Of a stretch of 64,000 bases of DNA, positions 5,716 to 11,081 are shown one piece after another. Below the pieces are notes generated by a model. The model did no database searches and was not told where the DNA came from. It saw only the letters and a list, made by a program, of their open reading frames with translations. The translations under genes and the position numbers were made by a program. Each line of letters starts with the position of its first letter. The first letter of the stretch is position 1. The DNA comes from an uncultured Rhodospirillales bacterium. Lineage in GTDB: Bacteria; Pseudomonadota; Alphaproteobacteria; Acetobacterales; Acetobacteraceae. The stretch is from positions 1 through 64,000 of the forward strand of contig CAIJTR010000062.1 of assembly GCA_903823665.1 (NCBI GenBank), written 5' to 3'.

Positions 5716-6423
5716 TTATGGTTCAAGAGAATCAAAAACCTCGCCATCCGCCAGGATCACATTCGCACTCGCCTGGAAATGCGCCATCAGCTGAGCCACC
5801 GCCCGATCCGCATTCCCATCCACCACAGCACGCGTGATCGCCTCATGTTCCTCATACAAATTCCGCACCGGAAACGCCTTGCGGGCGGAGAGCTGGCGAT
5901 AGCGATAGAGCAGATCAACCTGTTGATCGATATAGGTAATCAGCCAACGCGAGCCACAGCCGATAATCAACTGCCGGTGAAACAGCCGGTGCAGCCGCTC
6001 CCATTCCGGATTGCTCTCCAACCCCGTATCCGACAACGAGCGCCGGGTTTTTGAAAGCCGGTGCCACGCCAGCACCACGCCCTCCTCCCACGCAGCCGAG
6101 CCCTGCCGCATCGACTCGCGCAAAGCCCGCTCCTCCAGCCATGAGCGCGTCAGCGTCAGCTCCCGCAATTCCTCGGCGCTGATACCGGTCACGGTAAACC
6201 CGCGCTGATCGCGCAAGGCCACCAGCCCCTCTGATGCCAGCCGGTTCAGCGCCTCACGAATAGGCGTCTGCCCCACCTGATACTGCTGCATCAGAAACTT
6301 CAACTGCAGCTTCTGCCCAGGTTTCAGGCGGCCTTCCAGCAAATCAACCCGCAGCCGGTCGCACAGCGTGCTGGCCTGCGTCACAACAGGATCGGCAGAA
6401 ATAAGCGGCGGGGTGATATCCAT
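5716..6423 (-). CDS. GntR-family transcriptional regulator, FCD (FadR) subfamily
   Basis: 235-residue DNA-binding regulator. The N-terminal winged helix spans about residues 15-75 and includes VGQTPIREALNRLASEGLV, the family's recognition-helix region. The FCD effector domain follows, with LTRSWLEERALR and metal/ligand histidines in RLHRLFHRQLI and EEHEAITRAV. It lies between the TRAP operon and the divergent lyase gene, with related palindromes on both sides, so it most likely controls both in response to the catabolic substrate. ATG 6423 was chosen; an in-frame TTG at 6438 would add five residues. Confidence 0.9.
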   Translation of the reverse strand: MDITPPLISADPVVTQASTLCDRLRVDLLEGRLKPGQKLQLKFLMQQYQVGQTPIREALNRLASEGLVALRDQRGFTVTGISAEELRELTLTRSWLEERALRESMRQGSAAWEEGVVLAWHRLSKTRRSLSDTGLESNPEWERLHRLFHRQLIIGCGSRWLITYIDQQVDLLYRYRQLSARKAFPVRNLYEEHEAITRAVVDGNADRAVAQLMAHFQASANVILADGEVFDSLEP

Positions 6424-6506
6424 CTGATCTCGCGGCAAGAGGTATGTGGGCTGAGCTTAACAGAGGCCCCGGCATAAAAGCCGATACATTCCACCAATAC
6501 ACGCTA

Positions 6507-6616: not shown

Positions 6617-8158
6617 ATGAGCGTGTTTGAACTAGGTGCCACAAGCGCCACCATCGGCCTCATCCACGCCACCAGCGCCCCCGGCACCCGCATCACGCTC
6701 GCTGATACCGCATGGCAACGCATCCACGCCGCCCGCGAAGTCGTCGACCGCCTCGCCGCCGGTGACGCCCCCGTTTACGGCCTCAACACCGGCCTCGGCG
6801 GCAATGTCAGCTATCGCCTCTCACCCACCGAGATCGAGGCATTCCAGGTCCAGATGATCCGAGGCCGATGCATCGGCGTGGGCGAGCCATTCCCCGAGCC
6901 CCTCGCCCGCATGATGCTGCTCTGCCGGATTATCGGCCTCGCCCAAGGCGGCTCCGGCATCTCCCCACACGTGCTCGCACTAATGCTGGCGATCTTCAAC
7001 GCAGGCCTCACCCCCGTCATCCCCAGCCGAGGCTCCATCGGGGCCGGTGATCTCGGCCTATGCGCCCATATCGGTGCCGTCGTGATCGGCGAAGGACACG
7101 TCTTCGCTAACGGCCAAACTCGGCCTGCCCACGAAGCACTGACACAGACCGGACTCTTGTCAGCCAAACTCGGCCCGAAAGATGCGCTCGCCATCCTCAA
7201 CGCCAGCTCAATCACAACCGGACATGCCGCCGCCGTCCTCGCTGAACTTTGTGAGTTGCTAAGCTTATCCGCCGTCACCGCTGCCCTCACGGATGAAGGC
7301 TACGCCGCCAACCCCGCCATCTTCGATGCAAGGCTTGCCACAGCCCGCCCCGCCTCCGGGCAGGAACGCGCCGCCGCCATGTTTCGCGGACTGCTGCACG
7401 GCAGCTACCTGCACGACCCCGGTGCCCCCCGCTCCATCCAGGACGCACTCAGCTTCCGCGTCCTGTCGCAAATCTACGGCCCCACGATCACCAGCGTAGA
7501 AGCCGCCATCGAAGCCGTTGAAACGGAACTCAATGCGCAATCCGACAACCCGCTGGTGCTGACAGAGCCCGGCCTCATCCTCTCCACCGCCAATTTCCAC
7601 ACCCCGGCAATAGCACTCGCCTTCGACACGCTGGCCATAGCCCTCACCCATCTGGCAACCGCCGCGTCCTACCGGATCATCAAGCTGATGAACCCCGCCC
7701 TCTCCGGCCTTGCAAAATACCTCTCCCCCATTGGCGGGGCCCCCGTCGGCTTCAACTCACTGCAGAAAACCGTAGCCGCCCTGCACGCCGAAATCCGCCT
7801 GCGCGCCACACCCGCCAGCCTCGACTCGCTGCCTGTGTCGGACAGCGTCGAGGACCACGCACCCCACACGCCGCTCACCATCCGCAAGCTGGAAGAACAG
7901 CTCCTGCCGTTCCGTCTGCTGATCGCCATCGAAGCACTCGTGGCCGCCCAAGCCGTCGATATGCGCGGCCAGCCCCGCCTCGCCGCCCCCACCAGCCTGC
8001 TCTACGACGCCATCCGCGCTCAAATCCCAATGCTCACCGAAGATCGCGCCACCGGCCCCGATGTCGATGCCACCGCCGCCCTCATGCGATCACCAGACCT
8101 CCTCGCCCGCATCATCACCGCCGCCGGCCCAGATTGGGCCATTCCCCGCATCATCTGA
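6617..8158 (+). CDS. Histidine/phenylalanine ammonia-lyase family protein lacking the MIO serine
   Basis: 513-residue member of the aromatic amino acid lyase family, normal length for bacterial HAL. Kept features: the catalytic-loop tyrosine in VYGLNTGLG (Tyr54), Asn195 in AILNASS, SDNPLVL, and the late EDH of SDSVEDHA. The MIO-forming region reads GSIGAGDLGLCAH (residues 139-151) instead of the usual GSVGASGDLAPLAH: the Ser of Ala-Ser-Gly is absent by one residue, so the usual MIO cofactor cannot form. The second active-site motif QDxYSxR is QDALSFR, losing its Tyr. Fold and ancestry are secure; ammonia-lyase chemistry is doubtful. It is followed after 15 bases by an OCD homologue and probably controlled by the GntR protein. 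Confidence 0.85.
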   Translation: MSVFELGATSATIGLIHATSAPGTRITLADTAWQRIHAAREVVDRLAAGDAPVYGLNTGLGGNVSYRLSPTEIEAFQVQMIRGRCIGVGEPFPEPLARMMLLCRIIGLAQGGSGISPHVLALMLAIFNAGLTPVIPSRGSIGAGDLGLCAHIGAVVIGEGHVFANGQTRPAHEALTQTGLLSAKLGPKDALAILNASSITTGHAAAVLAELCELLSLSAVTAALTDEGYAANPAIFDARLATARPASGQERAAAMFRGLLHGSYLHDPGAPRSIQDALSFRVLSQIYGPTITSVEAAIEAVETELNAQSDNPLVLTEPGLILSTANFHTPAIALAFDTLAIALTHLATAASYRIIKLMNPALSGLAKYLSPIGGAPVGFNSLQKTVAALHAEIRLRATPASLDSLPVSDSVEDHAPHTPLTIRKLEEQLLPFRLLIAIEALVAAQAVDMRGQPRLAAPTSLLYDAIRAQIPMLTEDRATGPDVDATAALMRSPDLLARIITAAGPDWAIPRII

Positions 8159-8173
8159 CCGAAAGGAGCCCGC

Positions 8174-9175
8174 ATGCACCCGCTCTACCTCACCTATCTC
8201 AACCGCTTCGACATCGAGGCCCTCGCCATCACCAATGACGAAATCCTCGAAGCCATCGAGAGCAGCCTCGCCATCCAGGGCCGTGGGGAGGCGGTGATCG
8301 AGCCGCGTATGCATCTCGAACCCGGCGTCGCCCGCGGCCATTTCAACGTCCTGCGCGGCGCATTGAAGGAACCCATCGACTACGCCGGCGTGAAGGTCGT
8401 CGGCGACTTCGTAGACAACTACAAATTAGGTTTCCCCTCCGAACTCGCAGTCCTACTCCTGATGGACCCACGCATGGGCGCACCCCGCGCCATTCTCGAC
8501 GCCAGCGGCATCACCGACATGCGCACCGGTGCCATGACAGCCGTGGGCGCCAAATACCTCGCCCGCAAGAACTCCAAGGTGCTCGGCCATATCGGCGCAC
8601 GCGGCAGCTCCTACTGGAACGTCCGCCTGCTCGACCACCTCTTCAACTTCGACGAAATCCGCGTTCATTCCCGCAGGCCAGAAAGCCGCGAGGCATTCGG
8701 CGAGAAGCTTGAGCGTGATCTCGGCAAAAAGATCATCGTCACGTCCGATTGGCAAAGCTGCATCGAGGGTGCGGACATCGTCGTCGAAGCCTCGCGCCTC
8801 GAAGCACCGGAGCCGATGCTACGCACCGAGTGGATCACGCCCGGTGCGTTCGTCGTGCCCTACGGCACCATGTCCGCCATCGAACTCTCCCTCACCGACA
8901 TCATGTCCAAGCTCATCGTCGATGACTGGGGCCAATGCAAAGGCGGCAAATTCGGCAGCCTGCGCGCCCATGTGGAGGCCGGCAAACTCTCCGAACAAAC
9001 GCTCTACGCCGAAATGGGCCAGATCGTCGCAGGCCTCAAACCCGGCCGGGAAAATGATGCGGAAACGATCCTGTTTTGGCATCGCGGCCTGTCACTGTCC
9101 GACATCGCCCTCGGCCACGCCATGCTGAAAAAAGGCGAACGGCTCGGCATCGGCCAAAGGCTCCGCTTCGCCTAA
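8174..9175 (+). CDS. Ornithine cyclodeaminase / mu-crystallin family oxidoreductase
   Basis: 333-residue NAD(P)-dependent protein of the OCD/mu-crystallin family, whose members deaminate ornithine cyclically or reduce cyclic and alpha-imino acids. Visible features are Arg45 in EPRMHL, the catalytic Lys74 in YAGVKVVG, the DMRTGAMTA motif with Arg117, and a Rossmann glycine motif GHIGARG (residues 138-144). AGGAG lies just before ATG 8174, and the gene follows the lyase by 15 bases, so they form one unit. The pairing suggests one enzyme makes or uses an amino/imino acid handled by the other. The exact substrate is not deducible; OCD names are often wrong for divergent members. Confidence 0.85.
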   Translation: MHPLYLTYLNRFDIEALAITNDEILEAIESSLAIQGRGEAVIEPRMHLEPGVARGHFNVLRGALKEPIDYAGVKVVGDFVDNYKLGFPSELAVLLLMDPRMGAPRAILDASGITDMRTGAMTAVGAKYLARKNSKVLGHIGARGSSYWNVRLLDHLFNFDEIRVHSRRPESREAFGEKLERDLGKKIIVTSDWQSCIEGADIVVEASRLEAPEPMLRTEWITPGAFVVPYGTMSAIELSLTDIMSKLIVDDWGQCKGGKFGSLRAHVEAGKLSEQTLYAEMGQIVAGLKPGRENDAETILFWHRGLSLSDIALGHAMLKKGERLGIGQRLRFA

Positions 9176-9178
9176 CCG

Positions 9179-9946
9179 CTATTTTCCAAACGGCCAGATG
9201 AACTGTCCCGGCAAATTGGCCGGGACTGGCGTATCCACCCCATACGCCTCAGGCCAAGCCGATTTCGGCAAATAATACGTGCCGAAAATCCGGTCCATCA
9301 TCGGCAACATCGCCGCATAGTTACGGTTCACCACGCCGCCACTCGTGTGGTGCCAGTGATGAAACGCCGGTGTGGTGATCAAAAGCCGAAGCGGACGCAT
9401 CTCCCGCCGCAGATTGGCGTGGATCAGAAAGCTCCAGAATGTGCCAACAAGCGTGATGAAAAGCCCGATCATCCCACCAGAAGTCGACGCCGGGTTGGCA
9501 AGGCCAAGTGCATAAACCGGCATCAGCGTCACCATTCGCGCGATGAACAAATCAACTGGGTGGCCGCGTGTGTTGACCTGAAAATCCATACTCTCCGCGC
9601 TGTGATGGATCGCATGGAACCGCCACAAAAACGGCACCTCATGGCTCAGCCGATGGATCCAATAATAGAACACCTCACCGACCACCAACCCGGGCACGGC
9701 GCAAGCCATAATGTGCGCAGCATAAGCCGCCATACCCAGCGGCACAGCAACAATCGCGGTCACCACCGTGTTTTTGATGAAGTAATAGGCCGGATCAACC
9801 ATGATCTGACGACGCCAGATCTTCTGCGAACGCAGCGCAAACAGGCGTTCAAGTGGCACAAAAACTGCGCTCAGGAGTGTCAGCCAAATAAGGAGCCGGC
9901 CCTGGCTGAGCACCCAGACCGGCATGTCATGCACAAAATCGCTCAT
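9179..9946 (-). CDS. Sterol desaturase / fatty acid hydroxylase family membrane protein
   Basis: 255-residue membrane di-iron enzyme that would hydroxylate or desaturate a lipid. The histidine clusters are intact: HRLSH (98-102), HAIHH (111-115), His176 in LIHANL and HHWHH (196-200). About four hydrophobic segments surround them. ATG 9946 has GAGG six bases upstream. Its stop lies three bases beyond the convergent OCD gene's stop, with no terminator visible in between. Possible lipids include hopanoids, fatty acids or ornithine lipids; nothing nearby decides this. Confidence 0.85.
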   Translation of the reverse strand: MSDFVHDMPVWVLSQGRLLIWLTLLSAVFVPLERLFALRSQKIWRRQIMVDPAYYFIKNTVVTAIVAVPLGMAAYAAHIMACAVPGLVVGEVFYYWIHRLSHEVPFLWRFHAIHHSAESMDFQVNTRGHPVDLFIARMVTLMPVYALGLANPASTSGGMIGLFITLVGTFWSFLIHANLRREMRPLRLLITTPAFHHWHHTSGGVVNRNYAAMLPMMDRIFGTYYLPKSAWPEAYGVDTPVPANLPGQFIWPFGK

Positions 9947-9986
9947 GCAAACCTCAAAGCCTGCGCGGCAATTGCGCCGCCTCGTC

Positions 9987-10889
9987 TCAAGCCTTCTGGC
10001 GGCGACGCCACATTGCAAGGCTCACCGCAGCCAGGCCGACAAAGAACATGGCGAGGCTGGCAGGCACTGGGGCCTCAACGAGCGAAACGTCAGACAGCAA
10101 CACAACCGGCGGCAAGCCGTTGGGAGTTCCCAATGCGGTGAACGATTACACCTCACTGGCGGCCGTGGCCACGAACTGCAGCGACACCAAGCTCCAGCCA
10201 ACCGAGCTTTGTGCAGCGGTCGTCATCAGCGGCGAAGTGGCCGTCGAACTGCCCAGGCTCACCCGCCACCGTTCCGTGGTCGCACCGTAGAAACTATATT
10301 CCTCAGCCGCCGCTTGGTAGAAAGACAGGTCATAGATGGAGCCCGGATTTAGGCCGTTGATCGTTTGCGATAGCGTCGATGTGTGGTTTGAATCTCCATC
10401 GATCGCGACAACATTGCCGCCACCGGGTGATGCCAACGTTGAGCCAAGAACATTGTTCCAGTAGAGCCCAATTCCCGGCGAGTAGCCGAAGTTGAATTGC
10501 GAAATCACCACCTTGCCACCAGATTTGATCGCGGCAATGTCAGTTCCGAACAGCAAGGTCGACGGAGCATTGGTGCCTTGGCAGCCAAAGGTTGGGCAGG
10601 TGGTCGTCCAATTGGTCAATGCCGATGTACAGTTTGACGTGCCACCCGGACTTGGGACGGCGCAAAGATAGGTGTCCTGTGTGGCACTCGTGTTCTGGAA
10701 CGTTCCGTCCGTGATAAGGTCAACCGGCAGCGCTTGGGCCTGCGGTACCGTCAATCCAAACGCAATAATGCCCACGGCAACAAGTCGCACAAACACATGC
10801 AATTTAAGATGAGAACTTCCAGCCAGCAGGGCCATACCGTGCCCTACCATATTCCGAAAATAGAAAAACATCAGACGCATCTCACCCAT
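9987..10889 (-). pseudogene. PEP-CTERM-type secreted protein interrupted by an in-frame stop
   Basis: The first 247 codons encode a secreted protein: a signal peptide (hydrophobic VRLVAVGIIAFGLTV, cleavage near AQA-LPV), then a Ser/Thr/Gly-rich domain starting DLITDGTFQNTS, with several Cys. A TAA at 10146-10148 follows FVATAASEV. The same frame then stays open for 52 more codons, through SFTALGTPNGLPPVVLLSD to a typical PEP-CTERM sorting tail: APVPAS, a hydrophobic helix and terminal RRRQKA, ending at TGA 9987. The stop therefore removes exactly the sorting/anchoring signal. A point mutation (TTA to TAA fits), a sequencing error or readthrough could explain it. An exact start cannot be fixed; ATG 10835 is also possible. 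Confidence 0.75.
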
Positions 10890-11043
10890 TGATCCAGATG
10901 AGCGGAACTAGTTGCAGATTGATATTATTTTTATATACAAATTGTTTGAAAAACGCTATTTTTATTCCAGATCAATTTTATAAAGTATATTTTCATAAAT
11001 CCGATTGACGTTTTATAAAATCATTTTATTTCATGCTATTGGA
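10890..11043. other. AT-rich intergenic stretch upstream of the PEP-CTERM gene
   Basis: From about 10917 to 11040 the DNA is dominated by A and T runs, far from the composition of all neighbours. No gene is visible. It lies upstream of the broken PEP-CTERM gene and after the end of the molybdenum-enzyme operon, so it may hold a promoter or a nucleoid-protein (H-NS/MucR-like) silencing region of a transferred gene. No clean -35/-10 pair can be assigned. Confidence 0.5.
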
Positions 11044-11081
11044 GAAAAACAACGCGATCCGCCCGGCCAATGACCGGGCGG
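11044..11081 (-). terminator. Rho-independent terminator of the paoABC-like operon
   Basis: CCGCCCGG (11059-11066) pairs with CCGGGCGG (11074-11081) around a seven-base loop. In the leftward direction of transcription the stem is followed within about ten bases by a TTGTTTTT run. It begins nine bases after the stop of the molybdenum subunit gene. Confidence 0.7.

What the first reader, a model, noticed from the sequence alone, without database searches (positions are those of the whole stretch)
9987..10148. In-frame stop separates a PEP-CTERM anchor from its secreted protein
The frame before and after the TAA at 10146-10148 is the same. The downstream 52 codons encode a plausible continuation and a full sorting tail (APVPAS, helix, RRRQ). 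Loss of the tail would release the protein instead of handing it to exosortase. Either a recent nonsense mutation, a sequence error, or conditional readthrough is at work.
Basis: seen in the sequence. Interest (0 to 1): 0.55.

Follow-up and report, generated by a model that had tools for sequence, protein, structure and literature searches.

The report
Nonsense-truncated surface protein gene (likely pseudogene)
A gene for a bacterial surface protein carries a stop codon that cuts off the end of its extracellular part and its membrane-sorting tail, while relatives in other species run straight through, so this is most likely an ordinary gene broken by mutation.

Summary
On the minus strand a 247-codon ORF ends in TAA (10148-10146); the same frame runs on for 52 codons to TGA (9989-9987), encoding the rest of a PEP-CTERM-type protein. 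The continuation is homologous: 58.2 bits to a profile of 43 homologous tails, against 11.9 for the best of 1000 shuffles. Of 47 homologues with a residue at the stop column, 46 have leucine, 1 valine. The genome has an XrtA exosortase and 11 PEP-CTERM signals above cut-off. Two corrections: the stop lies inside the extracellular part, 25 codons before the motif, removing 7 of 21 invariant columns outside the tail, so loss of function is likelier than clean release; and the tail is not full, having Pro-Val-Pro for Pro-Glu-Pro and scoring below both curated cut-offs. None of 46 tRNAs found reads a stop (set incomplete). Two same-genus genomes hold PEP-CTERM ORFs split by TAG and TGA. Best reading: a fairly recent nonsense mutation in a dispensable gene. 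Assembly error cannot be excluded without reads; programmed readthrough has no positive support.

The parts
10149..10889 (-). Truncated ORF, 247 codons (start codon not verified): N-terminal hydrophobic stretch and most of a 'choice-of-anchor C'-like extracellular domain
   Evidence: NCBIfam TIGR04362 29.7 bits (cut-off 120), profile 47-134 of 157; nearest homologue 51% identical, G198
10146..10148 (-). In-frame TAA stop; leucine in 46 of 47 homologues with a residue here, valine in 1
10080..10145 (-). Read-on part 1 (22 codons, residues 249-270, SFTALGTPNGLPPVVLLSDVSL): end of the extracellular domain; holds 7 of 24 invariant columns of a 14-protein alignment
9990..10079 (-). Read-on part 2 (30 codons, residues 271-300): PEP-CTERM-like sorting tail with PVP in place of PEP, hydrophobic stretch, basic end WRRRQKA
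   Evidence: below both curated cut-offs; Glu in 41 of 43 aligned sequences (this one, with Val, among the 43)
9987..9989 (-). TGA, the end of the read-on frame
9179..9946 (-). Next gene downstream on the same strand, fatty acid hydroxylase family; context only (ATG at 9946 is my choice of start)
   Evidence: PF04116 101.7 bits

Best explanation
This is a relative of the 'choice-of-anchor C' PEP-CTERM surface proteins, in a genome of the family Acetobacteraceae, that has been broken by a nonsense mutation. Shown: the frame, the stop, the homology on both sides of it, an exosortase A gene in the same genome, and no stop at this column in the homologues read. Inferred: translation ends at the TAA; the product lacks the last conserved part of its extracellular domain and the sorting tail, so it cannot be handled by exosortase and probably folds badly and is degraded. 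The gene is then a young pseudogene whose tail has lost its diagnostic Glu but is otherwise still recognisable.
For: The continuation is homologous and collinear across the stop. At the column 46 homologues have Leu and 1 Val; genome searches that read through and count stops show none inside any listed match but this one and one in G131 that lies upstream of its ORF. The stop removes 7 invariant columns of the extracellular part. PEP has become PVP, whereas 41 of 43 aligned sequences keep Glu and so do all 11 own-genome tails over cut-off (10 with PEP; one with AEP). XrtA exosortase 285.4 bits, cut-off 208, and 11 PEP-CTERM hits over cut-off: the pathway is present. Only TTA among leucine codons is one change from TAA; TTA is 19 of 1935 Leu codons in 49 long window ORFs, 0 of 47 homologue codons at the column and 0 of 23 Leu codons upstream in this gene, so more than one change is likely, which speaks against one miscalled base. 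Similar lesions exist: G006:C341 (TAG) and G002:C6 (TGA) in the genus, and a homologue in G386 broken into frames. No stop-reading anticodon among 46 tRNAs.
Against: No reads and no second genome of the same species could be examined; the nearest homologue is about 50% identical, so the age of the stop is not measured. The tail is not clearly faster evolving than the body: its share of tree length is 1.53 times the body's, rank 9 of 44, which also fits a tail still in use. The tRNA set is incomplete (no Ile-GAT or Ala-TGC seen). The structure model is too poor (mean pLDDT 38.7) to show misfolding. For the TGA case no homologue spanning the stop was found.
Confidence: 0.74

Rival explanations
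1. Sequencing, assembly or strain-mixture error: the living cell has a sense codon here and the gene is intact.
For: The genome is a draft in 211 contigs; the rest of the frame is intact and the tail is not clearly accelerated.
Against: One miscalled base gives TAA from leucine only out of TTA, 19 of 1935 leucine codons in the window ORFs and 0 of 47 homologue codons at this column. The tail carries a second departure, PVP.
Confidence: 0.15
2. Functional truncation: the shortened protein folds and is released, an adaptive loss of the anchor like truncated internalin A of Listeria.
For: Premature stops in inlA are reported to give a secreted instead of an anchored protein (PMC6162745, passages seen). 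The upstream frame is intact.
Against: The stop removes 22 residues of the extracellular part, 7 of them in invariant columns, not just the tail. No homologue ending at this point was seen.
Confidence: 0.08
3. Programmed or conditional readthrough of TAA makes a mixture of released and anchored protein.
For: Frame and tail homology are kept after the stop, and the tail is not clearly accelerated.
Against: No stop-reading anticodon among 46 tRNAs; arrangement not seen in the other genomes searched; the split ORFs of the genus use three different stops in different contexts; the sorting motif itself is altered.
Confidence: 0.02

Closest known systems
PEP-CTERM/exosortase surface proteins (PF07589, TIGR02595; Haft et al. 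2006, PMC1569441, passages seen)
   Same: Hydrophobic N-terminus, extracellular part, then short motif, hydrophobic stretch and basic end in the read-on frame; exosortase A in the same genome; about 200 bases between the ORF and the gene upstream.
   Different: An in-frame TAA cuts the domain before the tail; the near-invariant Pro-Glu-Pro is Pro-Val-Pro; scores below both curated cut-offs; a same-strand gene follows about 40 bases after the read-on frame.
Choice-of-anchor C family domain (NCBIfam TIGR04362)
   Same: Best named match of the body: 35.8 bits, E 8.5e-9, when read through the stop; three homologues score 37.5 to 47.7 bits.
   Different: Far below the curated cut-off of 120 bits, as are the three homologues scanned; so related to the family rather than a member by its rule.
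Nonsense-truncated internalin A of Listeria monocytogenes (PMC6162745, passages seen)
   Same: A premature stop removes a C-terminal sorting anchor from a surface protein.
   Different: InlA is anchored through LPXTG and its truncated form is reported to be secreted; here part of the extracellular domain is lost as well and no product is known.

Membership tests
PEP-CTERM protein (functional member) | Translated C-terminal tail with Pro-Glu-Pro, hydrophobic helix, basic end | tested here: not met
   Tail lies behind a TAA and has PVP; 16.2 bits vs 20.7, 15.6 vs 16. Hydrophobic stretch and basic end are present in the read-on frame.
PEP-CTERM protein (functional member) | Exosortase encoded in the same genome | tested here: met
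   One PF09721 match in G000; XrtA, TIGR03109, 285.4 bits, cut-off 208
PEP-CTERM protein (functional member) | N-terminal signal peptide | tested here: inconclusive
   Hydrophobic stretch VFVRLVAVGIIAFGL seen in the translation and modelled as helix at pLDDT 63-77; no signal-peptide predictor was run
Choice-of-anchor C family (TIGR04362) | Score over the curated cut-off of 120 bits | tested here: not met
   35.8 bits read through, 29.7 as truncated
Nonsense pseudogene of a PEP-CTERM gene | Collinear homology on both sides of an in-frame stop that homologues lack | tested here: met
Nonsense pseudogene of a PEP-CTERM gene | Relaxed constraint downstream of the stop | tested here: inconclusive
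   PEP to PVP and 2 of 8 most conserved columns changed, but relative branch length only rank 9 of 44
Programmed stop-codon readthrough | Stop conserved among related species with conserved tail | tested here: not met
   46 Leu and 1 Val at the column in 47 homologues; no close relative was available
Programmed stop-codon readthrough | Stop-reading (suppressor) tRNA | tested here: inconclusive
   46 tRNAs found in G000, none reads a stop, but the set is incomplete and readthrough need not use a special tRNA
Programmed stop-codon readthrough | Extended product present in cells | not testable with these tools
   needs proteomics

The most novel reading that the evidence does not exclude
The TAA is read through at low or regulated frequency, so the cell makes mostly a released protein and a little that is anchored, and PVP is still accepted by its exosortase A.
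Probability: 0.02. Interest if true: 0.6.

Novelty: new member of a known kind. Interest (0 to 1): 0.12.

Why it matters
Mostly as an annotation point: the gene should be marked as interrupted rather than as a short secreted protein plus a stray tail. If nonsense lesions prove frequent among PEP-CTERM genes of this genus, that would fit a large, redundant and quickly changing surface repertoire, but the count here (at least 2 of 71 same-genus signals over cut-off, by hand, plus this gene) is small and has no matched control.

Tried and rejected
Chance tail: rejected by the profile test with shuffles and post-stop controls. Homologues that naturally end at this point: none found. The short or stop-bearing matches were looked at. 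G041:C490 begins at a contig end and has leucine at the column. G104:C124 lies within about 110 bases of a contig end and seems to share mainly the tail. G480:C182 ends at a contig end. G131's counted stop lies upstream of its ORF. G042:C87 has an in-frame stop well upstream of the column and no recognisable homology before it, 132 bases from a contig end, so it may be another broken copy. G386:C184 is itself broken, with its tail in another frame. Stop-reading tRNA: none among 46. Sigma-54 motif upstream, as Haft 2006 reports for many such genes (abstract passage): two loose patterns found none in the 571 bases scanned; I do not weigh this. Shared gene order with the G198 homologue: no other shared ORF of 120 aa or more between the first 30 kb of the window and 14 kb of G198. 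Solved structures: best E 0.19. Structure model: too poor to use; no fold search was run. Plasmids: two weak protein matches (41.5% over 38%). Papers: in the held library no paper has PEP-CTERM together with 'premature stop codon', 'readthrough' or 'choice-of-anchor'.

Rows dropped: the homologue set is 48 ORFs from loci L062-L110, made unique by their last 60 residues, not all rows. They were cut out as stop-to-stop ORFs, so a homologue with a stop at the column would appear as an ORF ending there; the one ORF without a residue at the column is G386's. One search left out six ORFs (L085, L095, L105 and three of L092); one search left out five (L077, L079, L085, L095, L105). The 71 same-genus signals were counted by hand; I opened only some of them (16 regions, several from other genera), so 2 of 71 is a lower bound. 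For the TGA case (G002:C6) no homologue spanning the stop was found; for the TAG case (G006:C341) one was, G002:C38, 1-185 of 185, 32% identical.

Full report
What is there. On the minus strand of the window an ORF of 247 codons (10889..10146) begins ATG, has a hydrophobic N-terminal stretch, and ends in TAA at 10148-10146. The same frame continues for 52 codons to TGA at 9989-9987.

Is the continuation real? Openness alone means little: 46 of 105 stop-to-stop ORFs of 200 aa or more in the window, over all six frames, are followed in frame by at least 52 open codons. Homology is decisive. A search of 397 genomes of the family found matches in 42, the own genome included; the best other is 51% identical over residues 25-299 in G198 and has no stop inside. 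One other row, in G131, counts a TAA, which lies upstream of that ORF. A draw of 395 genomes of the order, overlapping the first, had matches in 32 and no stop inside any listed match but the window's own. A profile of 43 homologous tails, built without this sequence, gives the 52 codons 58.2 bits; the best of 1000 shuffles gives 11.9, and none of 74 post-stop control segments is in the top eight.

What stood at the stop. Among 48 distinct homologous ORFs, 47 have a residue at the column: 46 leucine, 1 valine; the one with a gap (G386) is itself broken. Their codons are CTG 29, CTC 9, TTG 6, CTA 1, CTT 1 and GTG 1. TTA, the only leucine codon one change from TAA, is absent there, absent from the 23 leucine codons upstream in this gene, and 19 of 1935 leucine codons in 49 long ORFs of the window, some of which may be shadow ORFs. 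So more than one change is likely, which makes a single miscalled base less likely but does not exclude it.

Where the stop lies. The stop is residue 248; the motif PVP is residues 274-276, so 25 codons lie between. Most of these are the end of the extracellular domain: the NCBIfam match (TIGR04362, choice-of-anchor C, below its cut-off) runs to profile position 146 of 157 when read through and to 134 when not. In a 14-protein alignment 24 columns are invariant: 14 before the stop, 7 in residues 249-270 and 3 in 271-300. Truncation therefore damages the domain as well as removing the anchor. That it misfolds is inference; the structure model was too poor to help (mean pLDDT 38.7).

State of the tail. 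The motif reads APVPAS. Of 43 aligned sequences 41 have Glu in the middle of Pro-Glu-Pro, this one has Val and one has Gly. Haft et al. 2006 call Pro-Glu-Pro near-invariant (PMC1569441, passages). All 11 own-genome tails over cut-off keep the Glu: ten have PEP, one has AEP. Departures from conserved columns, leave-one-out, over residues 150-300: at 90% conservation, 2 of 8 after the stop (4 of 42 others as many or more) and 1 of 12 before it (20 of 42); at 80%, 3 of 12 (8 of 42) and 3 of 18 (7 of 42); at 60%, 9 of 27 (2 of 42) and 12 of 39 (6 of 42). The sequence is thus rather diverged on both sides, a little more so after the stop. Its share of tree length after the stop is 1.53 times that before, rank 9 of 44. 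Relaxed constraint on the tail is not proven.

The pathway. The genome has one exosortase (PF09721), of type A (TIGR03109, 285.4 bits against a cut-off of 208), and 11 PEP-CTERM matches above Pfam's cut-off; this tail is not among the 19 rows listed even at E up to 10. The genome shows no other match to TIGR04362 at E up to 0.001.

Readthrough. Of 46 tRNA genes found in the genome, none has an anticodon that reads a stop; the set lacks Ile-GAT and Ala-TGC, so it is incomplete. Two other PEP-CTERM ORFs in the genus are split by an in-frame stop, TAG in G006:C341 and TGA in G002:C6, in unrelated contexts. A homologue spans the first without a stop; none was found spanning the second. That is at least 2 of 71 same-genus signals over cut-off (hand count: G000 11, G001 11, G002 20, G004 18, G006 9, G007 2; not all were opened). 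Three different stop codons suggest scattered nonsense mutations, not recoding of one codon.

Taxon. The G198 homologue's contig matches in length and coordinates a record titled as an Acetobacteraceae MAG from a bog, and G198 is listed as the same family as the window's genome; hence Acetobacteraceae, by inference.

Verdict. A real in-frame stop in a real PEP-CTERM-type gene, best explained as a fairly recent nonsense mutation in a dispensable surface-protein gene.

Noticed in passing
L115 (G006:C341), minus strand, from 2068 down to 992: Another PEP-CTERM ORF of the genus split by an in-frame stop (TAG); a homologue in G002:C38 runs through.
   Followed up: partly
L117:974-1699, minus strand (G002:C6): PEP-CTERM ORF with an in-frame TGA 101 codons before its end; no homologue spanning the stop was found.
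   Followed up: partly
L126 (G006:C694), minus strand: PEP-CTERM ORF whose upstream part looks out of frame, perhaps a frameshift; judged by eye.
   Followed up: no
L113 (G011:C310), plus strand; L114 (G011:C449), minus strand: Short frames of 59 and 55 codons that hold a PEP-CTERM tail behind a TGA and a TAA; the upstream parts are too short or unclear to judge.
   Followed up: no
L095 (G386:C184), minus strand: Homologue of the window protein broken into pieces in different frames, tail TPEPATVAIL in another frame.
   Followed up: partly
L093 (G042:C87), minus strand, 964-1383: Homologue whose frame opens only after an in-frame stop, without recognisable homology before it, near a contig end; possibly another broken copy.
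   Followed up: partly
window 10890-11060: Visibly A+T-rich stretch upstream of the interrupted gene in a window of 62% G+C; about 200 bases separate the ORF from the gene upstream.
   Followed up: no
window 6617-9175, plus strand: Aromatic amino acid lyase gene directly followed by an ornithine cyclodeaminase family gene, with a GntR/FCD regulator on the other strand (5716-6438).
   Followed up: no
window 9347-10141, plus strand: Open frame of 264 codons opposite the fatty acid hydroxylase gene and the read-on tail; probably a shadow ORF.
   Followed up: no
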